A stretch of 64,000 bases of DNA from Afifella marina DSM 2698 (lineage in GTDB: Bacteria > Pseudomonadota > Alphaproteobacteria > Rhizobiales > Afifellaceae): assembly GCF_900102695.1 (NCBI RefSeq), contig NZ_FMVW01000005.1, positions 62,001 through 126,000 on the forward strand, in the 5' to 3' direction. The notes below the pieces were generated by a model that did no database searches, was not told the origin of the DNA, and saw only the letters and a list, made by a program, of their open reading frames with translations. The position numbers and the translations under genes are program-made. The number at the start of each line of letters is the position of its first letter. The stretch's first letter is position 1. Positions 2,294 through 20,987 of this stretch are shown here, piece after piece.

Positions 2294-2299
2294 CAGAAC

Positions 2300-4170: not shown

Positions 4171-4859
4171 GTGGCAAACTTTATGGCATTGGTGTCGGGC
4201 CCGGAGATCCGGAGCTCATCACCTTGAAGGCGGCGCGTATGATCGAAAGCGCCGAGGTGATCGCCTATCCCGCCCCCGATCCCGGCGAGAGTTTTGCGCG
4301 AGCGATCGCGGCAAAGCACATTGCAGCCGACACACGCGAGATCGTCATCCGCATCGCGATGCGCGCCGGACATGTCCCGAGCGAGCCCTATGACCTCGCC
4401 GCGGAGGCGATCGCCGCTGAGCTTGAAGAAGGCCGCGACGTGGTCGTGCTGTGTGAAGGCGATCCGTTCTTCTACGGCACCTTCATGTATCTGCACGACC
4501 GGCTGTGCCCGCGCTTCGGCTGCGAGATCGTGCCGGGGGTTTCTTCCCTCACCGCCGTTGCGGCGGCTGCGAGCCGGCCCCTGACACGGCGCACGGGCAC
4601 GCTCAACGTCTTTCCGGCAACGCTCGATCCGGCCATCCTCAAGGCGCGCCTCGGTGAAAGCGAAGCGGCGGCGATCTTGAAGGTTGGCCGTCATCTGCCG
4701 CAGCTCAAAGAGCTCATCGCCGATCTCGGGCGGCTCGACGAAGCTGTCTACGTCTCGCATGCGAGCCTGCCGCAGCAAAAGGTCGTGCCGCTTGCCGAGC
4801 TTGAAGCCGACGAGGCGCCTTATTTCTCGATGATCCTGATTGCGAAGGTTGAACGATGA
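4167..4859 (+). CDS. cobI: precorrin-2 C20-methyltransferase
   Basis: The 230-residue tetrapyrrole methylase adds the C-20 methyl group to precorrin-2 (or its cobalt form, CbiL role). The SAM-binding start YGIGVGPGDPELITLKAAR and the VVLCEGDPFFYGTFMYL loop near residue 92 are diagnostic. EIVPGVSSLTAVAAAAS near residue 118 and the AAILKVGRHL region in the second half also fit. Both ends overlap neighbours through ATGA. Whether it prefers the metal-free or cobalt substrate cannot be read directly; the CbiX in the same operon argues for the cobalt form. Confidence 0.94.
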   Translation: MSGKLYGIGVGPGDPELITLKAARMIESAEVIAYPAPDPGESFARAIAAKHIAADTREIVIRIAMRAGHVPSEPYDLAAEAIAAELEEGRDVVVLCEGDPFFYGTFMYLHDRLCPRFGCEIVPGVSSLTAVAAAASRPLTRRTGTLNVFPATLDPAILKARLGESEAAAILKVGRHLPQLKELIADLGRLDEAVYVSHASLPQQKVVPLAELEADEAPYFSMILIAKVER

Positions 4860-6679: not shown

Positions 6680-7470
6680 CCAGTCTCGACAACAATCCCA
6701 CCGGCAAGGTGCATTTCATCGGTGCGGGGCCGGGCGCGCCGGACCTCATCACCGTGCGCGGGCTAAAGCTCATCGAAAGCTGCCCGGTCTGTCTTTATGC
6801 CGGTTCCCTCGTCCCGGAGGCGATCGTCGCCGCCGCCCCGAAGGATGCGCTCGTACGCGATACGGCGCCGATGGCGCTCGATGAGATCCTCGCCGTGATG
6901 GAAGAGGCTTGCCGCAAGGGCCAGGACGTCGCCCGCGTCCATTCCGGCGATCCCTCGCTTTATGGCGCGATCGCCGAACAGATCCGCAGGCTGAAAGAAC
7001 TCGGCATCGCCTATGACGTGACGCCGGGGGTTCCCGCCTTTGCGGCGGCCGCGGCAGCTCTCGGCCAGGAGCTCACCATTCCCGAGGTGAGCCAGTCGGT
7101 CATCATCACGCGCACCGCCATGCAATCGTCGAAGATGCCAGAGGGGGAGAACCTCGTCGCCTTCGCCAAGACCGGCGCGACTTTGGCCGTGCATCTTTCG
7201 GTGCGCAATCTTCTCGCGATCGAGCGTGATCTGACGCCGGTCGTCGGTGGTGATTGCCCCGTCATCGTCGCCTACCGCGTCGGCTGGCCGGATGAGGATT
7301 TCATCCGAACCGATCTCGCCAATGTGCGCGAGAAGGTGCGCGAAAAGAAGCTCACTCGGACCGCACTCATTTTCATCGGCCGGGCGCTCGATGCGGACGA
7401 ATTCCGCGACAGTGCGCTTTACGACGCGTCGCATTCGCACATTCTTCGCGCCGCGACGCGCGAAGCCTGA
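6676..7470 (+). CDS. cobM: precorrin-4 C11-methyltransferase
   Basis: The 264-residue product matches CobM/CbiF, which methylates C-11. The GTG start overlaps the preceding stop as GTGA, and upstream sequence in the same frame is shadow. Motifs are VHFIGAGPGAPDLITVRG at the start, CLYAGSLVPEAI near residue 38, RVHSGDPSLYGAIAEQ near residue 89, DVTPGVPAFAAAAAALG near residue 115 and the R-T-A segment VIITRTAMQSSKMP. It ends 13 bases before the convergent cobB, with no clear terminator between. Confidence 0.94.
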   Translation: MTSLDNNPTGKVHFIGAGPGAPDLITVRGLKLIESCPVCLYAGSLVPEAIVAAAPKDALVRDTAPMALDEILAVMEEACRKGQDVARVHSGDPSLYGAIAEQIRRLKELGIAYDVTPGVPAFAAAAAALGQELTIPEVSQSVIITRTAMQSSKMPEGENLVAFAKTGATLAVHLSVRNLLAIERDLTPVVGGDCPVIVAYRVGWPDEDFIRTDLANVREKVREKKLTRTALIFIGRALDADEFRDSALYDASHSHILRAATREA

Positions 7471-7483
7471 AGCTCTCCGCGTC

Positions 7484-8788
7484 TTACGAGGCGCGGTCGA
7501 TCACGTGCAGGAAGGAGCCCGATACGCTGCCGCGGCAGAGGCCAACCTCGCCAAGCGGCGTATCGGCAGCATCCCGGCTGTCGAAGAGGCGCTCCGCCGG
7601 CCCTTCGCTCACGATGCTGGCGTAGTGGAACTCATGTCCGCCGAGGGGGCCTGCGAAGGGCCTGTCGGCAAGCGGCGTCAGCCGACGGTAGCCGAGATGG
7701 AGGCGTCGCGCGGCAAAACTCGTCACGAGCGGCAGAAGCCCGAGCATCTCGTGCCGTTCCCCTTCGGCGTCGATCAACGCGTCGCCGAGGGTCATAAACC
7801 CCCCGCACTCCCCATAGATGAGCTGGCCTTTCGACGCCGCGTTGCGCATGGCCCGTTTGAAGGTCGTGGCCGCGGCGAGCTTTCCTGCATAAAGCTCCGG
7901 ATATCCGCCGGGCAGAAAGATCGCGCCCGCATCCTCGGCCGGCGCGTCGTCGGCGAGGGGTGAAAAGGTGGAGATCTCCGCACCGGAGGCGCGCCAGTCC
8001 GCGAGCCAATGCGGATAGGCGAAGCGGAAGGCGACGTCGTCCGCGATGGCGATTTTTTGGGCGAGCGGAGGAAGGTCGGCGGCGTTCGCGCGGCTGTCGC
8101 CGAGCGGTGCTGCCGCCTGGAGAAGGGTGTCGAGATCGACATGTTTCTCGATCAGTTCCGCCGATGCCTCGATGACCGCATCAAGTGTCTGATGCTCCTC
8201 CGCCTGGACCAGCCCCAGATGCCGTGACGGCAATGCCAATCGCTCATCGCGCGGCACGATACCGATCAGCGGCACCGATGTGCGTGCAAAGCCTTCCTGG
8301 ATCAGACCTTGGTGGCGTTCAGAGCCGGCGCGGTTGACGATCGCGCCGGCGAGCGAAAAGCCTTGGGCCATGCGCGCGAAACCTTCGGCCACGGCGGCCG
8401 TCGATTGCGACATGCCGTTGGCTGCGACGACGAGGAAGGTCGGAAACGCAAGGGTTGCGGCGAGGCTCGCGGTCGAGCCGAGACCGTTCGCTCCGCCGTC
8501 GTAAAGCCCCATCACCCCTTCCACGACGAGCACGTCCGCGCCGTCCGCCTGGCGGGCGGCGAGTGCGCGAAGCCGTTCCGGTCGCATGGCGAAGGGATCG
8601 AGATTGATCGCCGGCGCGCCTGAAGCCGCTTCCAGAAAGCGCGGGTCGATGTAATCGGGCCCGCATTTGGCGGCCTTCACCTTCTGCCCGCGTCGGATCA
8701 GGGCGCGGATGAGGCCTGCCGTCAGAACCGTCTTGCCGGAATGGCTGGAGCCTCCGGCGATGAGAAATGCCTTCGACCCGCCCTTCAT
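7484..8788 (-). CDS. cobB: cobyrinic acid a,c-diamide synthase
   Basis: The 434-residue ATP- and glutamine-dependent enzyme amidates the a and c side chains of (hydrogeno)cobyrinate. The N-terminal synthetase domain has a modified P-loop, LIAGGSSHSGKTVLTAG (residues 9-25), followed by KCGPDYIDPRFL and VVEGVMGLYDG. The C-terminal class I glutaminase domain has FLPGGYPELYA and LIYGECGGFM with the nucleophilic Cys, plus a late His region (GGHEFHYA). Its start overlaps the cobA stop by ATGA, so cobA and cobB form a - strand operon that meets the main corrin operon head-on. Confidence 0.95.
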   Translation of the reverse strand: MKGGSKAFLIAGGSSHSGKTVLTAGLIRALIRRGQKVKAAKCGPDYIDPRFLEAASGAPAINLDPFAMRPERLRALAARQADGADVLVVEGVMGLYDGGANGLGSTASLAATLAFPTFLVVAANGMSQSTAAVAEGFARMAQGFSLAGAIVNRAGSERHQGLIQEGFARTSVPLIGIVPRDERLALPSRHLGLVQAEEHQTLDAVIEASAELIEKHVDLDTLLQAAAPLGDSRANAADLPPLAQKIAIADDVAFRFAYPHWLADWRASGAEISTFSPLADDAPAEDAGAIFLPGGYPELYAGKLAAATTFKRAMRNAASKGQLIYGECGGFMTLGDALIDAEGERHEMLGLLPLVTSFAARRLHLGYRRLTPLADRPFAGPLGGHEFHYASIVSEGPAERLFDSRDAADTPLGEVGLCRGSVSGSFLHVIDRAS

Positions 8789-9657
8789 GCGGCGCCACCG
8801 GCCTCCTTGGCGTAGAGATCGAGGCCCGTGCCGAGAGGGTCCGGATCGAGCTTACGGCCTTGCAGAGCCCCGAGCCAGTCGAGGCCTTTGCGCAGCTTCA
8901 CCACTTCGCCGAGAACGACGAGGGCGGGCGGCTCCATCTTGGCCGCAGCGCAATCCTCGGCCGCGCGGCCAAGCACGGTTTCCAGGACGCGCTGGCGTGA
9001 CGTCGTCGCTTCGGAGACGATCGCCACAGCTTCGTCGGGCCCGCGCCCTGCCGCCATCAGCGCGTCGGCGATGCCGGCCAGATGCTTGATCGCCATATAC
9101 ATGACGATCACCGGTGAGGCTTTGGCAAGCGCCTGCCAGTCGATCGAGGAGGGGGTCAGCCCTGTCTGGTCATGGCCGGTGAGGAAGGTCACGACATGGT
9201 TGATGTCGCGGTGCGTCGAAGGAAAGCCCGCATAAGCGAGGCCGCCGACACCGGCCGTCACGCCCGGCACGATACGAAAGGGGATGTTGTGGGCAACGAG
9301 CGTCAGGGCTTCCTCGCCGCCGCGCCCGAAGATCAAGGGGTCACCGCCTTTGAGACGACAGACGCGCTTGCCCGCACGGGCGAGCTCGACGAGGTGCAGC
9401 GAGATATCGCGCTGCTTGGCCGAGGGTTTGCCGCCGCGTTTGCCAGCATATTCGATGACGGCACCCTGGCGCGCATATTTCAGCACGGAGGAATCGACGA
9501 GCGCGTCGTAGATGACATGATCGGTCTGAGCGAGGGCATTGGCAGCGTGCAACGTCATCAGACCGGGGTCGCCAGGACCAGCGCCGACGAGCCAGACATG
9601 GCCGGGTTCGAACTGGGGCAGGTCCGCAAAGAGGGGGGAGGGGGGCAGAGCGTCCAT
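8785..9657 (-). CDS. cobA: uroporphyrinogen-III C-methyltransferase (SUMT)
   Basis: The enzyme makes precorrin-2 from uroporphyrinogen III by methylating C-2 and C-7, the branch point to cobalamin (and siroheme). From the ATG at 9657 the product has 290 residues; a TTG ten codons upstream is possible but lacks a ribosome-binding site. Signature motifs are VWLVGAGPGDPGLMTLHA, VCRLKGGDPLIFGRGGEE, IVPGVTAGVGGLAYAGFPSTHR and IVMYMAIKHL. No siroheme dehydrogenase domain is attached, so it is the single-domain CobA type. It feeds the CbiX-led operon on the opposite strand. Confidence 0.95.
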   Translation of the reverse strand: MDALPPSPLFADLPQFEPGHVWLVGAGPGDPGLMTLHAANALAQTDHVIYDALVDSSVLKYARQGAVIEYAGKRGGKPSAKQRDISLHLVELARAGKRVCRLKGGDPLIFGRGGEEALTLVAHNIPFRIVPGVTAGVGGLAYAGFPSTHRDINHVVTFLTGHDQTGLTPSSIDWQALAKASPVIVMYMAIKHLAGIADALMAAGRGPDEAVAIVSEATTSRQRVLETVLGRAAEDCAAAKMEPPALVVLGEVVKLRKGLDWLGALQGRKLDPDPLGTGLDLYAKEAGGAA

Positions 9658-9798
9658 GTCACTCTTTTTGCAGGAGGAAAACGGCAAGACAAGTGCCTTC
9701 GCGGGCTTGCCTGCGCTGCATTCAAGGCGTTTTGATCAAAGCACAATCTGGCGGCGCGTTTCGGTCTATCGGTACACGCGGGAATGAATGGAGAGCTC

Positions 9799-10566
9799 AT
9801 GGCCAAGGTGATGATCCTCGGCGGTACGGCGGAGGCCGGAGAACTGGCGGCGCGGCTTGCGGGAGATACCCGTCTCGACACCGTCACCTCGCTCGCCGGG
9901 CTGACGCGTCTGCCCCAGGCGGTGGCAGGCAACGTGCGCCGTGGCGGGTTCGGCGGCCCCGACGGGCTTGCCCAGGCTCTGCGGGAGGGCGGTTATGACG
10001 CACTCGTCGACGCGACGCATCCTTTTGCCGCACGCATCGCGCAGCACGCCAAAGAGGCGGCCGAGATGGCGCAGGTGCCGCGCATCAAGCTCGTGCGCCC
10101 GGGGTTCGAACGCCGTCCGGACGATCATTTCATCGAGGTTGCCGATATGGCAGGGGCCGCAGCCTCGATTCCGCAGGGCGCGCGTGTCTTTCTCGCCGCG
10201 GGGCGTCGCGAAATCCGCGCCTTCGCGGAGCGTCAGGATCTGTGGTGCCTGATGCGCATGATCGAACCGCCGGTCGCCGGGGAGGAGTTTCCGCGCGGCG
10301 AGGTCATTTTGGGTCGCCCGCCCAACGATCCACAGGCCGAGATCGCGCTCTTCAAGGAACACGGAATCGAATGGATCGTGTCGAAAGATTCAGGCGGCCG
10401 CGCAAGCGCCAAGATCGAGGCGGCGCGCCTTTTGGGCCTGCCCGTCGTGCTGGTCCGCCGACCGAAACCGCCGGAAGGGCCGAAGGCGGCTCAGCTCGAA
10501 GCGATCCTCGAATGGCTGGAGACGACGCTCTTTGCCGCGGCCGACGCGCCGGCGTCGCTCAGCTGA
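9799..10566 (+). CDS. cobK: precorrin-6A (cobalt-precorrin-6A) reductase
   Basis: CobK/CbiJ reduces the macrocycle at C18/C19 with NADPH. The ATG at 9799 has GGAG five bases upstream and fits the family start (KVMILGGTAEAGELAARL), giving 255 residues; an in-frame ATG 15 bases earlier is less likely. Typical parts are ALVDATHPFAARIAQHA near residue 72, VFLAAGRREIRAF, LWCLMRMIEPP, and WIVSKDSGGRASAKIEAA near residue 193. It is divergent from cobA. Its last 76 bases overlap the end of the convergent amidotransferase gene. Confidence 0.93.
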   Translation: MAKVMILGGTAEAGELAARLAGDTRLDTVTSLAGLTRLPQAVAGNVRRGGFGGPDGLAQALREGGYDALVDATHPFAARIAQHAKEAAEMAQVPRIKLVRPGFERRPDDHFIEVADMAGAAASIPQGARVFLAAGRREIRAFAERQDLWCLMRMIEPPVAGEEFPRGEVILGRPPNDPQAEIALFKEHGIEWIVSKDSGGRASAKIEAARLLGLPVVLVRRPKPPEGPKAAQLEAILEWLETTLFAAADAPASLS

Positions 10567-11321
10567 GCCTTCGGTGAACGGCCGTCACGCGCGATCCAGC
10601 TGTCTAAAAAGCCGTCGAGCCACTGGCGCACGGGCGGATCGTAGCGGAACCATTTGGCCATGTGGTCGGGCCTTGGCCGCGCCCCTGGCAGGTTCATGCG
10701 CTCCGCGCCTCGCACCGTCCAGCGGCAGGCCATCGCATATGTGAGCTCGGAGTGGAATTGCACGCCGAAAGCGGCCGGACCGATTGAGAACGCCTGGTTT
10801 TGAAAGAGCTCTCCACGGGCGAGCAGCGTCGCGTCTGTCGGAAGGTCGAAGCCTTCGCGGTGCCATTGATAGACATGGCTCGGCCAGTCCATCATCGCGG
10901 CCCCTTCAGGCGTCGCGTCGAGCCGGTAGAAGCCGATCTCCGCGCAACCTTCGCAGTGGCTTTTGACCTCGCCGCCCAATGTCTTCACCAGCATCTGCGC
11001 GCCAAGGCAGATGCCGAGGAAGGGGGCTTCTTCCTTCAAAGGGATATTGATCCAGTCGATCTCGCGCTTGACGAAATCGTCGGTATCGTTGGCGCTCATC
11101 GGACCGCCGAAGATCACAGCGCCGCTGTGGTCCGCCATCGTCTCAGGCAGCGGATCGCCGAAGCGCGGCCGACGGATATCGAGCCGGTAGCCCTTCGCCT
11201 GCAGCATCTGGCCGAGCTTTCCAGGGCTCGATGTCTCCTGGTGCAGGACGACGAGCACGGGCCGTCTCGCGTCATCGTTCGGGGCCTGACGCGTCAGATA
11301 ATGGATCGTTGCATCACTCAT
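10491..11321 (-). CDS. class I glutamine amidotransferase-like protein
   Basis: The 276-residue protein has a class I amidotransferase triad: nucleophile in FLGICLGAQML (Cys105), and GVQFHSE (His190, Glu192). It resembles stand-alone GuaA-type amidotransferases found in many proteobacteria, which may act on glutamyl-type amides or serve an unknown synthase; no partner is evident. The start at 11321 (MSDATIHYLT) overlaps the TerB gene stop by eight bases, which favours it over an ATG nine codons upstream. The 3' end overlaps cobK by 76 bases, and its last 20 or so residues are Ala/Ser-rich and poorly conserved-looking. Confidence 0.82.
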   Translation of the reverse strand: MSDATIHYLTRQAPNDDARRPVLVVLHQETSSPGKLGQMLQAKGYRLDIRRPRFGDPLPETMADHSGAVIFGGPMSANDTDDFVKREIDWINIPLKEEAPFLGICLGAQMLVKTLGGEVKSHCEGCAEIGFYRLDATPEGAAMMDWPSHVYQWHREGFDLPTDATLLARGELFQNQAFSIGPAAFGVQFHSELTYAMACRWTVRGAERMNLPGARPRPDHMAKWFRYDPPVRQWLDGFLDSWIARDGRSPKAQLSDAGASAAAKSVVSSHSRIASS

Positions 11322-11793
11322 TGTGTGATTCGCGCTCGCTCTGAGCATGGCGCTCGGCCACGGCGAGCTTCAGGCCGATACGCGCATTGCGATCGACACC
11401 CAAAAGCTCGGCGACGCGCCAGACGAGATTGTCTTCGAATTCATGCACTTCGCCGTCAACATAGATGACTTCCCAGAGCCTTTCCACCGCGCGGATGCGC
11501 TCTTCGATGGTCATCTGCCGCTTCAGCACACTGGTGAAGCGGTAAAGGTCGATCGCTTCGGCGTCGACGCGCTCGGCCTCGGTGATCAGACGCTCCAGAT
11601 CGTCGCCGCTCAGACCGTAATCCGCCTTGAGAATTTCGCGCATACGCGCGCGCTCATCTTCGCCGGCAGCGCCATCGACGGCGACGCAATGGACGAGCAA
11701 TGCGGCAAAGGCGAGTCGCTGATCGTCGTCAGTGAAAGGGCGTTGTTGTTCTTCACCCTTGAAAGTCAGGAAGTTGCGCAGTGCATCGAGCAT
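11314..11793 (-). CDS. TerB-family (tellurite resistance B-like) protein
   Basis: The 159-residue all-helical acidic protein contains a TerB-like domain: LAFAALLVHCVAVDGAAGEDERARM in two pieces near residues 27-52, then RAVERLWEVIYVDGEVHEFEDNLV, with the conserved D-G-x-x-x-x-x-E pattern twice. Such proteins are thought to bind metal or act as membrane-associated adaptors; the real function is unknown. It lies 95 bases downstream of yhaN and is coupled to the amidotransferase, so it may be the third gene of a YhaO-YhaN operon. Stand-alone TerB genes are common in alphaproteobacteria, and tellurite resistance should not be assumed. Confidence 0.8.
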   Translation of the reverse strand: MLDALRNFLTFKGEEQQRPFTDDDQRLAFAALLVHCVAVDGAAGEDERARMREILKADYGLSGDDLERLITEAERVDAEAIDLYRFTSVLKRQMTIEERIRAVERLWEVIYVDGEVHEFEDNLVWRVAELLGVDRNARIGLKLAVAERHAQSERESHNE

Positions 11794-11888
11794 GGTCAGG
11801 TCCCTTTGGCGCTGAAGCTAGTGCAAGAGACGTGCCGTTGCCAGTGACGGCTTGGTAAGACAGCGCGAACCTTCGGGTATGACCCGTT

Positions 11889-14800
11889 CTAAATCTCGAT
11901 CAGATCGAGGTCTTGGCCGAGAGCCTGCTCGGCCGTTGCCACCACGCTTCTGTGATGGGTGAAGAGGATCGGCTGGAAATGGGCGCTCGAGGCTGCAAGC
12001 GTTTTGATGCCGGCTGCCGTGCGTTCATCGTCGAAGGTCTGGAAGAGATCGTCGCCGATAAACGGTGCCGGCTCGTTGTGGCGACAATAATCCTCCAGAA
12101 AGGCGAGGCGAAGGGCGAGATAGAGCTGATCGCGCGTCCCGTCGCTCAGCCCTGAAATCGTGATCTTCTCGCCGTTCTTGCGCACCGCTTTGAGTTCTGG
12201 CTCATCCGCCTCGTTGAGCTCCTGCGCGAGTGTTGCGAATGCGCCGTCGGTCAGCATGAAAAAGAGCGCGCCGGCGCGCTCCATCATCGGGTCGCTCTCT
12301 TTTGCCCGGTGATGCTCCATCGCGGCCGTCAGAAGCGTCGCCGAGAGTTTCAGGACCGCCCATTGGCGTGCTGCCTCGACGATCTCGACCTCTGCGGCGT
12401 GTTTTGCGAAGGCGGCGGCCTCCGAACCGGGCGCGCGTTCCAGGCGTTCGCGCTCGCCGCGCTTTTCGGCGAGACGGGCATAGAGTTCCGCCATCTCCTG
12501 GTCGAGCTGCTCTTCGTCCCGGCCCAGCGTTTCCATGTCGATCTCGGCGCGGCCGCGATCGAATGTGGCGAGTTCGGTCCGCACGGCGTCTTCGCCTGCG
12601 CCATCGGATATCTCTGCAAGGCGCTCCCGGCAGCGGGCAAGATCCGCCGCCAGCCGATCGCGTTCCCGTAGCCGCGCGATGAGCTCGCTCGGATCGGCCT
12701 CGGGGGTGGCGGTCAGCGCATCCTCGAGCGCCTTGCGGGCGCGCGCGCTGCTCTCCTCGCTCGCAAGGAGGGCCGCCTTTGCTTCTGCGAGTGCTGTATG
12801 GGCCGCGCGCCGTTGCGCCGCGTCGGTGCGGGCTTCCTGGACCCGCTCCTCGAGCAGCTTGATAGCGTGCCCGGCCGGAAGTCCTGCGAGCTCTGTCGCG
12901 ACCTCGGCGACGAGGGCTCCCACCTTTGTTTCGAACTCGCCGATGTCGCGGCGCATCCCGGCAACCCGACGCTCGCGGGCATCGCGCTCGCGCCTCAAAT
13001 CGGGCAGGCGCTCCCACAGGCGGATATTGGCGGCGGCCTCTGCGATCGTCGTCTTCGGCGACAGCCCGACCGCGCCTGCAGCCGTGCGAAAGTGTTCCTG
13101 CCAGAGGCGGTCTTGCTCGTTCAGCTTCGCCGTCTCGTCCTCAAGGCGCTTGATGCGCAACTCGGCGTCCTCGCGGCGCCCAGCGAGCGCGCGGCTCTCG
13201 CTCCAAATGGTGGCGAGCGTCCGCAGCCGCTCCTCGATGGCGCGTAGCAAGGCCGGCTGCGGCAGGGCTTTCGCCTCTTCAAGGCCGATGCCTTCGGCGA
13301 TCGCGGCAAGTGCCGGCCCAAGCTCATCGGACAGGCGCTGAAGAGCGGAAAGTTCGCTCTCTCGCTCAAGGAGGAGGCGCCGTTCGTCGAGAAGGCGGGA
13401 AATCTCACCACGCCATGCCATCATGTCGTCCGCGCCGAGAGGCGTTACGCCGCAATGGGCAAAGAGTTCATGATAGGCCCGTTCGGTATGCGTGAAGGCT
13501 TCGCGCACCTTCGCCTTTTGCCGCTCAAGCGCTTCTGCCTCACAGAGCTGCGTCTCATGCTCTGCCTCTTCGAGCGCCAGCCGAGCGAGGGTCTCAGCAC
13601 CCGCCAAAGCATGATCAGCCAGCCGGTCGGCTTCTTTCGTCAAAACTTCGAAGGTGGCGACCGCGTGTGTGGCGGTCTCTTCGGAAAGGGGAGCCGTCTC
13701 GCCGAGGAGGGGGCCACGAAGCCCGGCAAAAGCCCGGTCACGCAATCCGCGTGCTTCTTCGATCTCCGCGGTGCTGGGCGGTGCGGGCTTGCCGGCGACC
13801 GCGCTTTCGGGGCGGAGCGCTTCCTGCTCCTTGCGATTGCGCGTGAGGGCCTCTTCGACCTGGTGCAACTCGTCTGAAGCTGCCTTCAGCCGGTTGCGAT
13901 GATCGGCAAGCGTCTCGACGGACGGCAGTGCGACCGCAGCGATGCGACCGAGATCGTCGACCGGCGGGACGAGAGCTGCGGCGTTTTCGACGAGTTTTTG
14001 CCGCTGCACGAGGCAGCCGCGCTCAAGCTCTTCGCGCTTTTCCAGCTTTTTCAGATCCGGGCGCAGCGCCAGGAGCTGGTCTTCCCAGCGCCTTGGATCG
14101 ATCAATGGCGTTACCGGCGCTTCACGGGCAAGCTCCGTGAGAGCATCGCGCTCTTCCGCAAGGCGCTTTTCGGCCGTTTCCCGAGCGGCTTTGAGGCGCT
14201 GTCCCTCGCTGACGGCAGCTTCGAGCGCGGCAAGGGCGGCATCCGGCGGCTGCAGGCGTTCAAGATCGGTGGCGGCGATCCCGAGGCGGCCGCCAAGCTC
14301 TGCCATCTGCGCGGTGTAATCGTCGCGCTCGGCGATGACGCGGGGAAGGTCGCGCTGGCTCTTGGCATAGTCCCCCGAGTTTCCGTAAAGCGCGCTGATC
14401 GTCTCGGCCTTGTCGATGAGCGCCTGATCGACAGCGATGCCGGCGAGTTTTGCTTCCGCCACCTTCACGCGGTCCTGGGCCGCGCTCAGAGCCTCTTCGG
14501 CGCGGGCGGCCTCGTGCAGCCGGGCTTCCAGACGTTCGGCCGTGCCGGACGGATAGGGCGCAAGATCTGAGAAGTCGGCGAGCCGTGCCGTCTCTCGATC
14601 GATCTCCGCGACGGTCGGTTCGATCTGGCGCAGCCGCTGCAGCGTATGCAGTTTCTGACGAATTTTCGCGCGCGCAGAGGCCAGAGCCTCGTGTTCTTCC
14701 TGAAGCTCGTCGATGGCGCGGTTGAGATCGCGCCAGTCGCCGGCGCGCAGCTGGCTCGCGCGTTCCTCCTTACGCGCCTCCTCATGGCGGTCGCGGATCT

Positions 14801-15359
14801 GGTAGAAGAGGCGGTCTTTGGAGGCACGCGGCGCGAAGATGCGGGTGGCGTCTTCCTCCAGCTTGGCTTTGGTGGCGCGCAGATGCAAAAGCCCCGAAGC
14901 GGCGGCAAACAAGAGGCTGCCGAGTTCGCCCTCGGCGGCGAGCATGGCATCGGCGCCAGCGCGAAGTCGCGCTGAATCAAGGCCGAATGCCCGCTCGAAG
15001 ACATCGCGCGACAGACCGCCTGTGAAAGGCAGGAGTGTGTCGTCGCGCAACGGCGTTTCGCTGTCGTCGTCGGAGAGCAGCGTGAGTTTGCGTCCGCGCT
15101 TGCGCCTGAATGTGAGGCTCGTTCCGTCCCCCGTACGGAGGCTCGCTGCGACCCGGAGCGCTTTTGTCCCGTGCAGGAATTCAAAGCCGTTGGTTCGCTC
15201 GGGAAAGCCGAAGAGGAGGTCGGAGATGGCGGCTAGAGCGGAGGATTTGCCGGCTTCGTTGCGCCCATAGACGAGATGCAGCTTTGCCTCGTCGCGAAAG
15301 TTGATCTCCCGCTCGGAAAATGCGCCGTAGCGCAGCAGAGTGAGGCGCTCAAAGCGCAT
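11889..15359 (-). CDS. yhaN: YhaN-like SMC/Rad50-type AAA ATPase
   Basis: The 1156-residue ATPase pairs with the YhaO nuclease like Rad50 with Mre11 (SbcC with SbcD). Walker A GRNEAGKSS is at residues 32-40. A central region of about 850 residues is rich in Glu, Arg, Leu and Ala with heptad character, read as long coiled coils. The C-terminal ABC signature ISGLSDGTRDQLYLALRLA and Walker B PFIGDDLFQTFDDER follow. The ATG at 15359 is chosen by homology (MRFERLTLLRYGAFSE); an ATG two codons earlier is equally possible. It overlaps the yhaO stop by 11 bases. YhaN/YhaO are inferred to process DNA ends; some homologues sit in defence neighbourhoods. Confidence 0.9.
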   Translation of the reverse strand: MRFERLTLLRYGAFSEREINFRDEAKLHLVYGRNEAGKSSALAAISDLLFGFPERTNGFEFLHGTKALRVAASLRTGDGTSLTFRRKRGRKLTLLSDDDSETPLRDDTLLPFTGGLSRDVFERAFGLDSARLRAGADAMLAAEGELGSLLFAAASGLLHLRATKAKLEEDATRIFAPRASKDRLFYQIRDRHEEARKEERASQLRAGDWRDLNRAIDELQEEHEALASARAKIRQKLHTLQRLRQIEPTVAEIDRETARLADFSDLAPYPSGTAERLEARLHEAARAEEALSAAQDRVKVAEAKLAGIAVDQALIDKAETISALYGNSGDYAKSQRDLPRVIAERDDYTAQMAELGGRLGIAATDLERLQPPDAALAALEAAVSEGQRLKAARETAEKRLAEERDALTELAREAPVTPLIDPRRWEDQLLALRPDLKKLEKREELERGCLVQRQKLVENAAALVPPVDDLGRIAAVALPSVETLADHRNRLKAASDELHQVEEALTRNRKEQEALRPESAVAGKPAPPSTAEIEEARGLRDRAFAGLRGPLLGETAPLSEETATHAVATFEVLTKEADRLADHALAGAETLARLALEEAEHETQLCEAEALERQKAKVREAFTHTERAYHELFAHCGVTPLGADDMMAWRGEISRLLDERRLLLERESELSALQRLSDELGPALAAIAEGIGLEEAKALPQPALLRAIEERLRTLATIWSESRALAGRREDAELRIKRLEDETAKLNEQDRLWQEHFRTAAGAVGLSPKTTIAEAAANIRLWERLPDLRRERDARERRVAGMRRDIGEFETKVGALVAEVATELAGLPAGHAIKLLEERVQEARTDAAQRRAAHTALAEAKAALLASEESSARARKALEDALTATPEADPSELIARLRERDRLAADLARCRERLAEISDGAGEDAVRTELATFDRGRAEIDMETLGRDEEQLDQEMAELYARLAEKRGERERLERAPGSEAAAFAKHAAEVEIVEAARQWAVLKLSATLLTAAMEHHRAKESDPMMERAGALFFMLTDGAFATLAQELNEADEPELKAVRKNGEKITISGLSDGTRDQLYLALRLAFLEDYCRHNEPAPFIGDDLFQTFDDERTAAGIKTLAASSAHFQPILFTHHRSVVATAEQALGQDLDLIEI

Positions 15360-16608
15360 CGGCATCCTCCTCCGTGGCAAGGCGGACGCGGAGAAGATCG
15401 GCGGCTTCGGCAAGAAGGGCCGGCATATCTGCGCCGAGCGGTGCCGCCTCCGCACCCAGCCCACCGGGCAGCTTGGCCGCGATTTCGGCGACGATCCCCT
15501 GGGCCTGATCGAGGATCTCCGGATCGCGCACAAGCGCTTGCAGGAGCGGTTCGATATCGAGCTTCTGATCTGGATTGACCGTTTGTGCCGGTGTTGCCGA
15601 CTCGCTCACGCGCAGATCGAGCTTTTCCAGCCAGATGTCGGGGTGGCAGCGATGGCAGGCGGCCTGCACGTCGTCGACGAGATTGGCGCGATCGGCGATC
15701 AATCGCCGTCGCAGCGGCGAGGTGCCGGTGAGGCGGAGACGCAGGGCCAGGAGCCGGTCTTTCGCTGTCTCGGCATGGGTCGAGATACGTTCTTCCACGG
15801 CGGTTAGAAGCTGCGCCATGGTCTCGATGCCGCCGATATCGAGTGCGATCTCGGCAAAACGAGCCTCGTCGACCAGAAGCCGCTCTTTGTTTGTTACCTG
15901 CCCGTCCTCGACGGTGACGAGGACGGCGCCTTTTTCACCTGTCTCACGGATGGAGCGGGCCTGAAGATTGCCGGGGAAGACGATCGGCGGATCCTCGGCC
16001 ACGATCTCGAAATCGTGGACGTGCCCGAGCGCCCAATAATCATAGCCGCGCGCGGCGAGTTCTTCGGCGGAGCAGGGGGCGTAGCTCGCATGGGGAGGGC
16101 GCCCGGTCAGCGCCGTGTGAAGGACGCCAATGTTGAACTGGCCGGGGACGGGCGGTGGATAGGCGAGCGCGAGATTGTTGCGCTCCGCACGTTCACGAAA
16201 CCCCTGGCCGTGCAGAGCCACTTTGAGGTGGTCGATGCGGAAGCTCTCCGGCTTTGCCGTGTCGAAGGCGCGCACAGAGCCTGGAAGCGCGATGCTCTTT
16301 GTCACGACACTGTCGGCATCGTGATTGCCTTTGAGGAGAAAGACCGGGATGCCGGCGCGGTCGAGACGCGCCACCTCGCGGTTGAAGAAGAGGCCGACAT
16401 TGTTGTCGGGCCATTCGCCGTCATAGATATCGCCCGCAATGACGAGAAAGGCGACCTTGCGTTCGATCGCCTGGGCGACAAGGTTTTGGAATGCGCGGCG
16501 GATCGCCTCCGCAAAGCGCGCAGCGATTTCTGGATCCTTGACGCTCAGACCCTGCAGCGGGCTACCCAGATGCAGATCGGCGGCGTGCAGGAAAGTGAAG
16601 GATGCCAA
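15349..16608 (-). CDS. yhaO: YhaO-like (SbcD/Mre11-type) metallophosphoesterase nuclease
   Basis: The 419-residue calcineurin-like phosphoesterase has all the metal motifs of DNA nucleases: FLHAADLHLGSPL (residues 6-18), VIAGDIYDGEW near residue 56, LLKGNHDADS near residue 91, LHTALTG near residue 162 and YWALGHVHDFEI near residue 192. The start is a TTG preceded by GAGG at six bases. The remaining 200 residues form a C-terminal capping and ATPase-binding region. It is followed by and overlaps yhaN, and the two are read as a DNA double-strand-end processing complex. Confidence 0.9.
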   Translation of the reverse strand: MASFTFLHAADLHLGSPLQGLSVKDPEIAARFAEAIRRAFQNLVAQAIERKVAFLVIAGDIYDGEWPDNNVGLFFNREVARLDRAGIPVFLLKGNHDADSVVTKSIALPGSVRAFDTAKPESFRIDHLKVALHGQGFRERAERNNLALAYPPPVPGQFNIGVLHTALTGRPPHASYAPCSAEELAARGYDYWALGHVHDFEIVAEDPPIVFPGNLQARSIRETGEKGAVLVTVEDGQVTNKERLLVDEARFAEIALDIGGIETMAQLLTAVEERISTHAETAKDRLLALRLRLTGTSPLRRRLIADRANLVDDVQAACHRCHPDIWLEKLDLRVSESATPAQTVNPDQKLDIEPLLQALVRDPEILDQAQGIVAEIAAKLPGGLGAEAAPLGADMPALLAEAADLLRVRLATEEDADAL

Positions 16609-16803
16609 GAAATCCTCGTCGCAGACAAAGGGCGGATAGGCTCAGCTATGGGATGCGCGGGCGATGATCGCAAGCCGGCCTTTTGCCGGGACGGGTCGTC
16701 GCGCGACACCGTCGGTCGCGCTCCTGCCTCTTGAGGACCTTATCCCCTCTATGCAGATTGCCCCCAGGCGGGGCGCAGATCGATCACAACGGAGAGGTTC
16801 CCC

Positions 16804-17364
16804 ATGGCTCAGACACAACCGGATCCAGACGCGGTCGACAAACAAACCTCGGAATCCGCGCAGAACGGTGACGGCCGCTTCCGTATCGCCGATCTTTCGA
16901 GCTTTCACGCGGATCCGGACAAGTTCTTCGACTTTTCCTACCGGCAGACCCTGCACGATATGGTTCAGGCGGTGATCGAGGCCGAAGCGCCGGTGCGGGA
17001 AGATATCCTGGCGCAGCGTATCGCCCGCGCCCATGGCTGGCAGCGCACCGGCCGGCGCATTCGCGACCAGATCGCCAAACATCTGCGCGAGGTCGATCGT
17101 ACGGACGAATCGTCCGGCGACTTCCTGTGGAAGAAGGGAACAGTTGCGAGCCGCGTCGCCTACCGGCCGCCGGCAGGGCCTGCGCATCGCCGGGCCGTCG
17201 GCGAAATCGCCATTGCCGAACTGAGCGATGTGGTGGAGGCCAATCTGGCGCTGCTCGACGAGGATGATCCGCCGCTGGTGCTTGCCCGTCTCATCGATGT
17301 GGAGCGTCTGTCGGCGAGCGCCCGCTCTCGGCTCGAAGAGGCGATCGAACGCACAAGGCCGTAG
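16804..17364 (+). CDS. stand-alone DUF3320 domain protein
   Basis: The 186-residue protein has a core (about 45-110) with the pattern of DUF3320: LHDMVQAVIEAEAPVRED followed by LAQRIARAHGWQRTGRRI and a basic helix. This winged-helix-like domain is usually at the C-terminus of very large DUF4011-type helicases, so a short free-standing copy is unusual. The first 25 residues are polar and probably disordered; the end is Glu/Arg-rich. GGAGAGG lies seven bases before the ATG. It is divergent from yhaO (195-base gap) and convergent with the endonuclease gene 18 bases away. Function is unknown; a DNA- or protein-binding adaptor is an inference. Confidence 0.72.
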   Translation: MAQTQPDPDAVDKQTSESAQNGDGRFRIADLSSFHADPDKFFDFSYRQTLHDMVQAVIEAEAPVREDILAQRIARAHGWQRTGRRIRDQIAKHLREVDRTDESSGDFLWKKGTVASRVAYRPPAGPAHRRAVGEIAIAELSDVVEANLALLDEDDPPLVLARLIDVERLSASARSRLEEAIERTRP

Positions 17365-17382
17365 CTTGGGAGTGTCAGTCTC

Positions 17383-18477
17383 CTAAGGGTGGAGCTTTGC
17401 AGAGGTCATTTCGCTGTCGGCAGTCAGAAAGCGATAGCGCTGATCGAGATAGGATGCCCACGGATCGTCCGGACCGAGCTCGTCGATCAGAGGCCGAAAG
17501 AGCGCCTCGGTCGAACAGCTGACGAAGTCGCTCGGCGTTTGGAGAAGGCCGCTGAAGACGGCAAAGGCGTCCTTGCCGAATGGTCTAAGTGCCGGCGAGG
17601 TCACTTTGCGAAGTGCCAGGTTAGCGGACGGCGCGATATGCAGGACGCGGACCCGCTCCGCCCCTTCTTCTCGCGCTTTCTGCATTTGAAAGGCGAGCAT
17701 TTGCTGGCGCAGGAGCTGGTAAAACGGCTCGTAGAAGAAATCGTCAAGCGACAGACCGAGATCTGAGCGGATCGGCCCCTGGGGAGCGAAGGCGAGAGCT
17801 CCGTAACGCATGGTGCGGACGTCATGGCCGGTCGGATCGAGCGGCGCGCCGTATCGTTCGGTGTACTTCCATTCGATCAGCAGCGTCTCGCGTCGGCCCT
17901 GATGCTGGAAGGCGAGGCAGGCGTCGGCGCTGGTGCAATTCGCTCCGCGTGTGCGCCCTCCGGTTCCCGATCCCTTTGCGACTGACCGGCTCTCATTGAG
18001 ATAATCGCCGTCGATCCACTCGAAAGCGACATACCAGGGACGTCCTTCAGGCCCGGCTTCGACCGGCAGCATGTGGGGTTGGGGAATGTCGAGCGCCAGC
18101 GAGACGAGCCGTGACAGGACTTCGGGTCGTTCGGCGAGAGGCATCAAAAAGTTGAGACAGCACGCCTGCGATGAAAGCGCATGGTCTGCGGCGAGATGCC
18201 AGGTGATGCGGCGCTCAGAGAAATAGGCGGCGGCTTTGGTGCGAATCATCGGGGCGAGGTTGAGGCGCTCACCACCCGGCGTCAGCCAGAAATCATAGCC
18301 GCGATAGCCGATCCTGTCTGGGAATCTCTCACGAAAGTAAGCCGACTGGCTCTGCTTTTCGGACGCCGCAAACGAACGGGCGCGCACAAACTTCGGCGCC
18401 TTTTCCGTCACCGGACTGCCGGAGGGGTCGGCGCTGCACTTGGCTGGGCTTTTATGGATGCCTCCCGGGTTGGACAT
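17383..18477 (-). CDS. putative PD-(D/E)XK endonuclease, PGN_0703-like
   Basis: The 364-residue protein resembles the PGN_0703 family of putative restriction endonucleases. A likely nuclease core is the Asp of SADACLAF followed by LLIEWKYTERYG (E-x-K) about 18 residues later. RIGYRGYDFWLTPGGERLNLAP opens the conserved part near residue 60 (cited here in two overlapping readings), and FMPLAERPEVLSRLV follows. The ATG at 18477 is preferred because an upstream ATG at 18498 would start inside tRNA-Thr. No methylase or specificity subunit is beside it. Its placement against a tRNA gene and next to DUF3320 suggests an accessory insertion. The family assignment is from memory of the conserved pattern. 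Confidence 0.62.
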   Translation of the reverse strand: MSNPGGIHKSPAKCSADPSGSPVTEKAPKFVRARSFAASEKQSQSAYFRERFPDRIGYRGYDFWLTPGGERLNLAPMIRTKAAAYFSERRITWHLAADHALSSQACCLNFLMPLAERPEVLSRLVSLALDIPQPHMLPVEAGPEGRPWYVAFEWIDGDYLNESRSVAKGSGTGGRTRGANCTSADACLAFQHQGRRETLLIEWKYTERYGAPLDPTGHDVRTMRYGALAFAPQGPIRSDLGLSLDDFFYEPFYQLLRQQMLAFQMQKAREEGAERVRVLHIAPSANLALRKVTSPALRPFGKDAFAVFSGLLQTPSDFVSCSTEALFRPLIDELGPDDPWASYLDQRYRFLTADSEMTSAKLHP

Positions 18478-18487
18478 AGGGAGGCGA

Positions 18488-18563
18488 TGGTGCCGCATGC
18501 CGGACTCGAACCAGCGACCCCCTCATTACGAATGAGGTGCTCTACCAACTGAGCTAATGCGGC
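18488..18563 (-). tRNA. tRNA-Thr (anticodon CGU)
   Basis: The - strand folds as a complete cloverleaf. The acceptor stem is GCCGCAT at 18557-18563 with ATGCGGC at 18492-18498. The D-arm is TAGCTCAGTTGGTAGAGC. The anticodon stem CTCAT/ATGAG encloses the loop with anticodon CGT. The T-arm contains GGTTCGAGTCC. The discriminator A and an encoded CCA are at 18488-18491. The start of the putative endonuclease gene lies about ten bases past the 3' end. Confidence 0.97.
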
Positions 18564-18719
18564 CCGGCCGAGCCATGGCTCGGCGACAGGATGTCGTCGA
18601 TCGACACCGGGCATTGAGGGGCGGTGCCCCTTAGCGCGCCACCTCTTAGCGAAATGTGGGCGCGCGGGCAAGCGGGGAAGACACCCGTTTGCCATGCGCG
18701 TTCGTTATCGACGACAGTT

Positions 18720-20987
18720 TCAGAAAAGCCTGAAGCGGCTGCGCCCTGCCTCTTCTTCGGGCTTCTTTTCCTCTGGTCCTGGATCATCCGGCAGGCGCGG
18801 CCGATTGCCCTGGCTGCCGTTGGCGCGCTGCGAAGCGTCCTCATCCTCGGAATGGGCGTCCTTTGGCGCATCGACCGGAACGGGCGGTGCCTTCGGTGCC
18901 TCGCCCTTGCCCTCTGCCAAGGGGTCAGGCCGCTTGGGAGCCGTATTCGCCGATGCGGCCGGCGTTGGACTGGCCGGCGTTGGACTGGCCGGAGTGGGAC
19001 TGGCCGGAGTGGGACTGGCCGGTGTGGGAGTGGCCGGTGTGGGAGTGGCCGGTGTCGGAGTGGCCGGTGTCGGGCTCGCCGCAGGCGAGGCGATCGACGG
19101 TTTTTCATCCGCCGGTTTTGCGCCTGCGGACCGGCCGGCCGTGTTCTCGACAGCCTTGCTGTCGGGCGCGACTGGCGCCGCAAAAGATGTCGTAGCCTGT
19201 GAGCCCGCACTGCTCTCTTTCGGTTTCGTGGCATCCGTTGCTGCGGAGGTTTTGGCGCTCTCTGGGGCCGCGGTCGTCGTCGGCTTGTCGGTTGCTGCGG
19301 GTGCAGGCTCACGCGGTTTCGGCGGCTGGATGGCCCCCACCCCGGCTGCCGCTCCGGCCCCGCTAAGGATGGCGGTGGTCTTGGGAGGTTGCGGCTTTGC
19401 TGCCGTTGGTGGCGTGCCTGCGTCCGCACTGGCTTTGGGCTTGTCGGTAGATGGTGCTGCCGGCTTTTCGGCGTCAGCGGGTTTCGCCGCCGCGGTGGGT
19501 GCCGTCGTTGAACCCGCCGCAGGTGTGGTGGTGGTCTCGGGCTTTCCACCTGTCGGCTTGAACCGCGCTGTCGCCGGTCCGCTGGACGCAGATGCCGCGG
19601 AGACCGGGGTTGCGGTCAATGTCGGGGCCGGGCCCTCGTCGCGCAGGGGGCTGATCTCGCGCGGACGGAAGCTCGCCTCATCGATGTCGATGGTGCGGCG
19701 GCTCTCCGGTTCCTCGATCGGCACCTTCCATTCCACCGTGTCGATGCGGCCGGTCACCGGTGAAACCGGCGCCCATTCGTCGAGGATGACGCCATCGGCG
19801 GTCCAGGCCGGATCGCGCGGCGCATGCACGGCGCGTGACAGCCATTCGCGGGCGCGGCCGCGATCGCCATGCTCGCCTTCCTCGATTTCGGCCATCATCA
19901 GAAGCGCGTTCTGTGTCGGCCGGGTGCGGATCATCGGTAGAAGTGTCTCGCGGGCGCGCTCCCAGTCGCGCGAGCCGATTGCCGCGCGCGCCATCACCAT
20001 GCGCGCTGCATCCTCCTGCGGACGCAGCTTCATCAAGGTTTCGAGACGCTGGAAGCGGTCCCGGGCGGAATCGCCGGGGCGCACATTGGCGTAGGCGTCA
20101 GCAATGTCGGGATGCGGATTGGCCTTCCAGGTGGTCTCCAGAACGCGCGTGGCGCGACGAATGTCGCCGAGACGTGAGGAGAGGCGGCCGGCAAGAACTG
20201 CAGCCGGAACCAGACTCGGCTGCAGACCATGGGCCTCGAGCGCTGCTTCCTTGGCCTTGTCTGGCTGGCCGTCTTCCCAGTCGATTGCCTGAGCGGTCAG
20301 GATCACCGCGCGCAGGCGGCGCGCTTCCTTGCGATCGATGTCGCCGGTCTCGGCATAACGCGAAAGCGTCTTCAGTGCCTCTTCCCAGGAGCCTTCCGCC
20401 GTCTGATAGCGCATCAGGGCGCGCGAGGCCCAGGCGGCCGAAGGCGAGGTCTCGCGCGCCTGTTCGGCGAATGCGCGAGCCGTGTCGTGGTCGCCCTCGC
20501 GCGCTGCCTCGATGAACAGGCCTCTCAGGCCCACAATGCGCGTCCGTTCATGGCCGAGCATGCCCTTGAAGGCTTCGCGCGCCTTGGCGTGGTCGCCGCG
20601 CAGCTGCGCCGTCTGTGCCCGAAGCAGCAGAGCCAGAGGCTCGTCGTCGCGGCGTGTCAGGTCGTGAGATGCACGCTCGGCGGTGCGCAGATCTCCGGCG
20701 GCGACGGCGAGAAGGCCCGTCGACAGCGCCTCGCGCTGGCGGCGTTCGCGGCGGCGACGCCAGGATTGGCGGGCTTTCAGCGGGAAACGCAGGATGAGAA
20801 CGATCAGCCCGACGACGATGAAGCCGGCGGCGATTGCCAAGAGCGCCGCGAGAGCGGCGCGGGCAAGCCCGATCGTATAGGCCGTGTCGGCGAAGGTGAG
20901 GGTCACTTCGCCGGGGGCTTCCTTCAGCCAGGAGAAACCCAGCACGAAGGCGAAGACGACGGCGATGAGAATGAGGAAGCGAATCAT
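18720..20987 (-). CDS. hemY: HemY-like membrane TPR protein with long Ala/Pro/Thr tail
   Basis: The 755-residue protein begins with the HemY N-terminal region: one membrane helix at residues 2-18, a second near 40-68 (ALAALLAIAAGFIVVGLIVL), then a basic stretch and TPR-like helical repeats to about residue 400. HemY is linked to the late heme pathway and to Mic60 in alphaproteobacteria; its molecular role is not settled. From about residue 450 to the end it is low-complexity Ala/Pro/Thr/Lys, including eight tandem five-residue repeats, so it is far longer than usual HemY. It is the last gene of hemC-hemD-mic60-hemY, nine bases after mic60. Confidence 0.88.
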   Translation of the reverse strand: MIRFLILIAVVFAFVLGFSWLKEAPGEVTLTFADTAYTIGLARAALAALLAIAAGFIVVGLIVLILRFPLKARQSWRRRRERRQREALSTGLLAVAAGDLRTAERASHDLTRRDDEPLALLLRAQTAQLRGDHAKAREAFKGMLGHERTRIVGLRGLFIEAAREGDHDTARAFAEQARETSPSAAWASRALMRYQTAEGSWEEALKTLSRYAETGDIDRKEARRLRAVILTAQAIDWEDGQPDKAKEAALEAHGLQPSLVPAAVLAGRLSSRLGDIRRATRVLETTWKANPHPDIADAYANVRPGDSARDRFQRLETLMKLRPQEDAARMVMARAAIGSRDWERARETLLPMIRTRPTQNALLMMAEIEEGEHGDRGRAREWLSRAVHAPRDPAWTADGVILDEWAPVSPVTGRIDTVEWKVPIEEPESRRTIDIDEASFRPREISPLRDEGPAPTLTATPVSAASASSGPATARFKPTGGKPETTTTPAAGSTTAPTAAAKPADAEKPAAPSTDKPKASADAGTPPTAAKPQPPKTTAILSGAGAAAGVGAIQPPKPREPAPAATDKPTTTAAPESAKTSAATDATKPKESSAGSQATTSFAAPVAPDSKAVENTAGRSAGAKPADEKPSIASPAASPTPATPTPATPTPATPTPASPTPASPTPASPTPASPTPAASANTAPKRPDPLAEGKGEAPKAPPVPVDAPKDAHSEDEDASQRANGSQGNRPRLPDDPGPEEKKPEEEAGRSRFRLF
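18957..19076. repeat. eight tandem 15-base repeats inside hemY
   Basis: Eight copies of a 15-base unit beginning GGCCGG lie end to end. They come in pairs: copies 1-2 are identical, as are 3-4 and 5-6; copies 7-8 differ by one or two bases. They encode a PTPAT/PTPAS repeat (about residues 637-677). The 15-base period keeps the frame, so copy-number changes would lengthen or shorten the tail without breaking the gene. It is not a CRISPR: there are no spacers. Confidence 0.95.

What the first reader, a model, noticed from the sequence alone, without database searches (positions are those of the whole stretch)
11314..18563. Nuclease-rich accessory block next to tRNA-Thr
YhaO/YhaN, a TerB-like protein, a free-standing DUF3320 protein and a PD-(D/E)XK putative endonuclease lie together, bounded on one side by tRNA-Thr(CGU). 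DUF3320 is normally the tail of large DUF4011 helicases in defence loci, and PGN_0703-like proteins are annotated as putative restriction enzymes. No helicase, methylase or integrase is visible, so if this is a defence module it is of an unusual, reduced type. The two small genes and YhaO/YhaN are divergently arranged, which weakens a single-system reading.
Basis: partly seen in the sequence, partly recalled or inferred. Interest (0 to 1): 0.55.

Follow-up and report, generated by a model that had tools for sequence, protein, structure and literature searches.

The report
Shrunken phage-defence protein beside nuclease pair
A small gene that looks like the cut-off tail of a large anti-phage protein sits, still kept by selection, beside a YhaO/YhaN nuclease pair, and full-length versions of that protein sit beside similar nuclease genes in some other bacteria, which suggests a working partnership.

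Summary
The accessory block is yhaN, yhaO, a free-standing DUF3320 gene and a PD-(D/E)XK endonuclease (11889 to about 18478). TerB and tRNA-Thr are core neighbours. Three of five genus genomes carry the block.

Free-standing DUF3320 is exceptional. In 397 order and 398 phylum genomes the other matches lie in large ORFs or in broken or contig-edge ones, bar one spurious hit. The 186-aa protein corresponds to the C-terminus of the DUF4011-helicase-nuclease-DUF3320 protein that NCBIfam calls anti-phage ProA, and is under purifying selection (dN/dS 0.06-0.07).

Full-length ProA-type genes recurrently lie beside SbcD/YhaO-like genes, usually with an SbcC/YhaN partner: 6 of 63 genome loci, 10 of 21 partly selected plasmid loci. 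On three Mesorhizobium plasmids the layout is divergent, as here, so divergence does not weaken the link. Against direct descent, the window's YhaO groups with solo YhaOs; a small crude control alone shows no enrichment.

The endonuclease is probably separate: its nearest relatives lie between type III Res and Mod, and none was found in 65 DUF3320 loci.

Best reading: a reduced, selected derivative of a ProA-YhaON association plus an unrelated orphan nuclease. Function untested.

The parts
11889..15365 (-). yhaN, Rad50/SbcC-like ATPase (1158 aa from this start; the longest ORF runs to 15533)
   Evidence: AAA_27 220.5 bits; GRNEAGKS and LSDGTRDQ motifs; dN/dS 0.12-0.14
15349..16608 (-). yhaO, Mre11/SbcD-like phosphoesterase (419 aa)
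   Evidence: Metallophos 48.3 bits; DLHLG, GDIYD, GNHD, GHVH and PGN motifs; dN/dS 0.12-0.13
16609..16803 (.). divergent intergenic region between yhaO and the DUF3320 gene
   Evidence: 96% and 95% identical to G001 and G002, against 90/87% for yhaO and 96/90% for the DUF3320 gene; the cobA-cobK intergenic region is as conserved (99/95%) and TerB-yhaN less (87/87%), so nothing special is shown; no Rfam match
16804..17364 (+). free-standing DUF3320 gene, 186 aa, matching the C-terminal tail of ProA-type proteins
   Evidence: PF11784 74.6 bits; NF058533 positions 1743-1903 of 1903, 101.9 bits; dN/dS 0.06-0.07; binomial p 4e-9 against neutrality
17383..18478 (-). PD-(D/E)XK endonuclease (REase-ARP family), start uncertain; solitary relative of a type III R-M operon gene
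   Evidence: PF22558 141.4 bits; D192, E209, K211, Q261 and R264 (P0002 numbering) invariant in 9 sequences; dN/dS 0.16-0.18; frameshifted in G001
18488..18563 (-). tRNA-Thr(CGT), boundary of the variable interval, not part of the module
   Evidence: ARAGORN; sequence similarity to G003, G004, G007, G008 and G009 stops by eye at its 3' end; no second copy of its last 24 nt in the window
11314..11793 (-). TerB-family gene, core neighbour, not part of the module
   Evidence: kept beside GATase-cobK-cobA in G003, G004 and G007

Best explanation
The DUF3320 gene is what remains of a ProA-type anti-phage protein (DUF4011, SF1 helicase, Vsr-like nuclease, DUF3320) after loss of everything but its C-terminal tail, and it has been kept by selection beside YhaO-YhaN, a Mre11/Rad50-like nuclease-ATPase pair. 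Proposed mechanism: DUF3320 (described in print as overlapping a winged helix-turn-helix) binds DNA and/or YhaO-YhaN and helps direct or control that nuclease at DNA ends, in DNA repair or invader defence. Shown: homology to the ProA tail, intact motifs, purifying selection, and recurrent adjacency of full-length relatives to such nuclease genes, in operons or in the same divergent layout. Inferred: the deletion event, DNA binding, physical or functional coupling, and a defence role. The endonuclease is separate cargo related to an accessory gene of type III restriction operons.
For: P0001 matches only positions 1743-1903 of ProA NF058533 and 1389-1532 of PADLOC PDC-S37. Other short frames looked at are contig-edge or broken tails (L276), except a 233-aa fragment next to an IS6 transposase in R. 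leguminosarum 9B. Purifying selection: dN/dS 0.06-0.07, stronger than on yhaN/yhaO; p 4e-9. Linkage: L205, L227, L257 (fragment), L176 and L177 within 2.5 kb plus L238 as an operon, 6 of 63 genome loci; 0.13-0.19 expected under an assumed 2-3 such genes per 5 Mb, P 2e-7 to 2e-6 for five. Plasmids: 9 of 21 fetched loci within 2.5 kb plus L279. Same divergent layout in L273, L274, L275, L280 and L227. Related ProA tails have either an SbcD/SbcC-type or a YhaO/YhaN-type partner. The four linked large proteins scanned against NCBIfam pass the ProA cut-off of 1500: L205 2161.5, L273 2144, L279 2189.9, L176 1631.3.
Against: The window's YhaO nests among solo alphaproteobacterial YhaOs (66% to G136) and is only 33-37% identical to the linked YhaOs of Mesorhizobium, Bosea, G213 and G364 and 44-47% to those of R. 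beringeri and Paraburkholderia, so the cluster is not a direct descendant of those modules. A crude control is weak: an SbcCD pair anywhere in the locus in 1 of 19 unrelated loci against 8 of 65, Fisher p 0.68; the case rests on immediate adjacency and orientation. The Poisson figure ignores relatedness. L141, L257 and L277 show only the SbcD-like gene or a fragment. YhaON is mostly solo: of 25 regions fetched for YhaN, DUF3320 was found only in L176 and L177, both picked for it. Most ProA-type loci have no such neighbour. G000 keeps a full ProA elsewhere, G001 and G002 show no second DUF3320 match. Both structure predictions failed (pLDDT 39.6 and 33.7). No expression or phage data.
Confidence: 0.48

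Rival explanations
1. The small DUF3320 protein is simply a transcriptional regulator of the divergently transcribed yhaO-yhaN operon, using a winged helix left over from a defence protein.
For: Divergent layout with 195 nt between start codons and conserved intergenic DNA; wHTH overlap stated in PMC3710099 (passage).
Against: The intergenic conservation is no higher than at cobA-cobK. In Bosea, R. beringeri, R. phaseoli and G213/G308 the partner genes are co-directional with the large DUF3320 gene, where a regulator role is less natural.
Confidence: 0.2
2. Unlinked cargo: a variable interval next to tRNA-Thr gathered a YhaON pair, a ProA fragment and a type III-associated nuclease independently; the adjacency has no functional meaning.
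For: The interval holds quite different genes in G003 and G004. The window's YhaO belongs to a mainly solo clade. ProA fragments and splits do arise beside insertion sequences. The endonuclease has no tie to the rest. The small control does not separate linked from unlinked loci by presence alone.
Against: Purifying selection on the DUF3320 gene; the same gene order and orientation recurs with full-length proteins; immediate adjacency well above a random expectation.
Confidence: 0.24
3. A four-gene reduced defence system including the endonuclease.
For: All four genes are shared by G000-G002 in the same order. The endonuclease's active-site residues are intact and its dN/dS is 0.16-0.18.
Against: The endonuclease is broken in G001 while its neighbours are intact; no relative was found beside DUF3320 or YhaON in the other loci scanned; nearest relatives are in type III operons.
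Confidence: 0.05
4. A decaying remnant without function.
For: Only about the last tenth of a protein of about 1990 aa is left.
Against: dN/dS 0.06-0.07 over three species, p 4e-9 for one pair; intact frame in all three.
Confidence: 0.03

Closest known systems
Anti-phage protein ProA (NCBIfam NF058533) / PADLOC candidate PDC-S37
   Same: The 186-aa protein matches its last 161 positions. G000 carries a complete ProA elsewhere (2160.9 bits), next to a GmrSD_N protein.
   Different: No DUF4011, helicase or MTES_1575 nuclease part. The models describe one protein; the nuclease-pair neighbour is not part of them.
YhaO/YhaN and SbcD/SbcC (Mre11/Rad50-like)
   Same: Five phosphoesterase motifs, and Walker A and signature-like motifs.
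   Different: Most YhaON regions fetched have no DUF3320 neighbour.
Type III restriction-modification operons with an extra REase-ARP gene (G004 C7; Phenylobacterium plasmid pA)
   Same: The endonuclease is 54-59% identical, with the same catalytic residues.
   Different: There it lies between Res and Mod with touching ends; in the window it stands alone.
Hhe anti-phage protein (NF042953)
   Same: Matches the helicase-nuclease half of ProA-type proteins.
   Different: The four linked proteins scanned score 754-1046 bits, below its cut-off of 2000; the window gene lacks that half.

Membership tests
ProA anti-phage protein (NF058533) | whole-protein score above the curated cut-off of 1500 bits | tested here: not met
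   101.9 bits, positions 1743-1903 only
ProA anti-phage protein (NF058533) | DUF4011, SF1 helicase and MTES_1575 nuclease domains | tested here: not met
   only DUF3320 found; full set present in L273
DUF3320 (PF11784) | score above gathering cut-off | tested here: met
   74.6 bits against 25, positions 1-50 of 50
winged helix-turn-helix | predicted wHTH fold | tested here: inconclusive
   AlphaFold2 with 2 sequences gave pLDDT 39.6; fold taken from a passage of PMC3710099
YhaO/YhaN pair | phosphoesterase motifs and Rad50-type ATPase motifs in adjacent overlapping genes | tested here: met
   a Walker B pattern tried did not match as written
REase-ARP / PD-(D/E)XK nuclease (PF22558) | score above cut-off and catalytic D...ExK | tested here: met
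   141.4 bits against 27; D192, E209, K211 invariant in 9 sequences
Type III restriction-modification system | Res and Mod genes alongside | tested here: not met
   none recognised in the block; G000's Mod of this kind is on C21 and truncated
tRNA-integrated genomic island | integrase and duplicated tRNA 3' end | tested here: not met
   no integrase recognised in the block by eye; no second copy of the last 24 nt with up to 3 mismatches; two further 15-nt matches with 2 mismatches, at 22734 and 41452, not clearly above chance
Anti-phage defence system | protection against phage | not testable with these tools
   needs phage challenge

The most novel reading that the evidence does not exclude
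ProA-type helicase-nucleases and Mre11/Rad50-like pairs (SbcD/SbcC-like or YhaO/YhaN) form a multi-gene anti-invader system, not described in the papers searched here, that is joined through the DUF3320 domain; and the window shows a minimal natural form in which DUF3320 alone, without helicase or nuclease, still serves YhaO-YhaN.
Probability: 0.25. Interest if true: 0.68.

Novelty: new variant of a known kind. Interest (0 to 1): 0.5.

Why it matters
ProA is filed as a single protein, and the paper searches here turned up no study that ties YhaO/YhaN to it. A recurrent, partner-swapping neighbourhood between them would give both a testable partner. The small DUF3320 protein is a natural experiment: it asks directly what the tail domain does once helicase and nuclease are gone.

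Tried and rejected
Integration at tRNA-Thr: no second copy of the tRNA end and no integrase recognised. A conserved RNA or operator in the yhaO-DUF3320 gap: no Rfam match; fold z-scores -0.44, -0.93, 0.13 and -2.00; conservation matched by another intergenic region. Structures of P0001 and P0002: both models too poor for a fold search, so none was run. Viral relatives: none for P0002 or P0001; one ProA-like gene with the profile, on a contig whose other reading frames look partly phage-like by eye. A type III system elsewhere in G000 as partner of the endonuclease: the C21 locus is 94% identical to G004's over about 8 kb, but homology stops inside Mod and no endonuclease is found there; the window endonuclease is only 54-59% identical to G004's, so it is not the missing piece.

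What was left out of counts: L258 (canonical SbcCD, convergent, 3.8 kb away) was not counted as linked; L248 fell below the threshold; matches G351 (judged spurious), G855 and G852 (short, broken or contig-edge) were not in the 63 loci; several of the 63 end at contig edges, so absence of a neighbour there is not proof. L176 and L177 are two species with identical YhaO. Plasmid linkage is not an unbiased rate: 21 of 64 DUF3320 records were fetched, several because hits lay close together. My notes hold two slips corrected here: an in-frame stop in the G002 endonuclease (it lies at the natural end) and 28 YhaN regions (25 were fetched for YhaN).

Papers: DUF3320, DUF4011 (33), YhaO with YhaN (36), DUF3320 with SbcC/SbcD (83), PDC-S37 (84) and combined searches gave no paper whose listing showed a link between ProA-type proteins and YhaO/YhaN or SbcCD; only open PubMed Central text was searched. 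REase-ARP and PGN_0703 gave nothing. Passages only were read in PMC3710099 and PMC10250203; all other papers were seen only as search listings.
Full report
What is there. The region 11314-18563 encodes TerB, YhaN, YhaO, a free-standing DUF3320 protein, a PD-(D/E)XK protein of family REase-ARP and tRNA-Thr(CGT). yhaO and yhaN overlap and read on the minus strand; the DUF3320 gene reads on the plus strand, 195 nt from yhaO; the endonuclease reads back toward it and the two stops are 18 nt apart. The YhaO motifs and the Walker A and signature-like motifs of YhaN are present, and so are the nuclease residues D192, E209, K211, Q261 and R264, in the numbering of P0002, across nine sequences.

What belongs together. 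TerB is beside GATase, cobK and cobA also in G003, G004 and G007, and tRNA-Thr is beside hemY in the eight genomes looked at (G000-G004, G007-G009), so both are treated as core. Between them G000, G001 and G002 share the four accessory genes; G003 and G004 of the same genus hold other genes. yhaO has a close match in G000-G002, a 55% match in G009 and a 28% partial match in G010, of 11 family genomes. The DUF3320 gene is in 3 of 11 family genomes. The interval is variable, but I recognised no integrase and found no attachment repeat.

How unusual the DUF3320 gene is. In 397 order genomes, 33 hold a match and there are 36 matches; five sit in frames under 500 aa: the three of this genus, G210 and G351. 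In 398 phylum genomes, 40 hold a match and there are 42 matches; three besides the window, G997, G855 and G852, are under 500 aa. On inspection G210, G997 and G852 have further pieces of the large gene in other frames upstream, G855 begins near a contig edge, and I judge G351 spurious. On plasmids, L276 is a broken large gene, and one 233-aa form lies next to an IS6 transposase on R. leguminosarum plasmid pRL9b2; not all 64 plasmid records were looked at. The window protein corresponds to positions 1743-1903 of the 1903 of ProA, and G000 also has a complete ProA on contig C4 (2160.9 bits, cut-off 1500), next to a GmrSD_N protein. Tail identity between the two is 61%.

It is selected. dN/dS of the DUF3320 gene is 0.06-0.07 between the three species; yhaN and yhaO 0.12-0.14; cobA and cobK 0.01-0.03. 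The endonuclease has 0.18 between G000 and G002 and 0.16 for its later part against G001, where it is frameshifted. For DUF3320, G000 to G001, 4 of 24 changes alter the protein, p 4e-9 under neutrality.

The link with nuclease pairs. I scanned 65 loci with DUF3320 matches outside the window's cluster for YhaO/SbcD-like and YhaN/SbcC-like genes. Eight held one: L205, L227, L238, L257, L258, L176, L177 and L141. Measuring gaps over 63 genome loci (window trio not counted) gave five within 2.5 kb: L205, L227, L257 (a fragment), L176 and L177 (two species, identical YhaO). L238 adds an operon with the ATPase gene in between, making 6 of 63. About 0.13-0.19 would be expected for an assumed two or three such genes per 5 Mb; P for five is 2e-7 to 2e-6. 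This ignores relatedness. A cruder comparison does not separate the sets: an SbcCD pair anywhere in the locus in 1 of 19 unrelated control loci (289 kb) against 8 of 65, Fisher p 0.68. The argument therefore rests on immediate adjacency, orientation and recurrence. On plasmids, 9 of 21 fetched loci were within 2.5 kb and L279 adds an operon; this set is partly selected. Of the 64 plasmid records with a DUF3320 match, at least 13 are adjacent, ten by annotation or HMM and three by hit coordinates. In L141, L257 and L277 only the SbcD-like gene or a fragment is seen.

Layout. In Bosea, R. phaseoli, R. beringeri, Mesorhizobium 131-3-5 and G213/G308 the genes are co-directional. In Mesorhizobium AR10, M. 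loti NZP2037, M. amorphae, Paraburkholderia phymatum and G364 the large gene is divergent from yhaO-yhaN, as in the window. Closely related ProA tails are partnered by either the SbcD/SbcC type or the YhaO/YhaN type, which argues for a functional tie rather than common inheritance alone.

Evidence against simple descent. In a 45-row YhaO tree the window trio sits among solo YhaOs, and the linked label needs nine changes, at least eight of them forced by well-supported branches. The window's yhaO is 66% identical to that of G136, 33-34% to those of the Mesorhizobium plasmids, 34-37% to those of G364, G213 and Bosea, and 44-47% to those of R. beringeri and Paraburkholderia. The DUF3320 trio, however, lies in the clade of 34 tails that contains the rhizobial ProAs. 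The cluster is therefore an independent instance of the association, or one with a replaced partner. YhaN itself is common: by my count 84 of 357 order genomes have a match over 100 bits in the list, and of 25 regions fetched for YhaN, DUF3320 was found only in L176 and L177, which had been picked for it.

The endonuclease. P0002 has matches in 7 of 397 order genomes and the family PF22558 in 8 of 385 class genomes. Its nearest relatives found, in G004 and on a Phenylobacterium plasmid, lie between type III Res and Mod with touching ends; another, in G347, sits on a 3.7-kb contig without them. No relative was found in the DUF3320 or YhaN loci scanned. G000 has a truncated copy of the G004-like type III locus on C21 without it. 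It is best regarded as separate cargo.

Mechanism and limits. DUF3320 is described as overlapping a winged helix-turn-helix (PMC3710099, passage read); the structure predictions here failed, so this was not tested. That the protein binds DNA, acts with YhaO-YhaN or protects against phage is inference. No paper listed in the open-library searches showed a link between these genes; the closed literature was not searched.

Noticed in passing
G000:C4 (L021) 11363-19370: The same genome carries a complete ProA (1981 aa) directly after a GmrSD_N protein, a likely second defence locus.
   Followed up: partly
G000:C21 (L196) 1317-10269 against L018: A type III restriction locus 94% identical to that of G004, but homology stops inside Mod; Res and the endonuclease were not found there.
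   Followed up: partly
L129, L130, L132: Distant REase-ARP relatives form a two-gene cassette with a partner of 239-247 aa that looks conserved by eye.
   Followed up: no
L275 9544-12189, L280 13630-16251, L274 9726-12416: A further AAA ATPase of about 870-900 aa lies next to the 3' end of the large DUF3320 gene (on the opposite strand in L274) in loci that also have YhaO-YhaN, a possible fourth gene.
   Followed up: no
L263, L264, L265: SbcD/SbcC-like pairs close to those linked with ProA also occur without it on rhizobial plasmids; in L265 a toxin-antitoxin pair follows directly.
   Followed up: no
L285 4025-12531: In R. leguminosarum Vaf-108 an IS21 element lies between a DUF4011 gene and a DUF3320 gene, apparently splitting one ProA-type gene.
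   Followed up: no
window 18720-19800: The HemY-like protein has a long Pro/Thr/Ala repeat tail; DNA identity to G001 and G002 over this part is about 70%, gaps counted, while neighbouring genes are near 90%.
   Followed up: no
L016 6634-7113: The TerB gene of G001 stops four codons earlier than in G000.
   Followed up: partly
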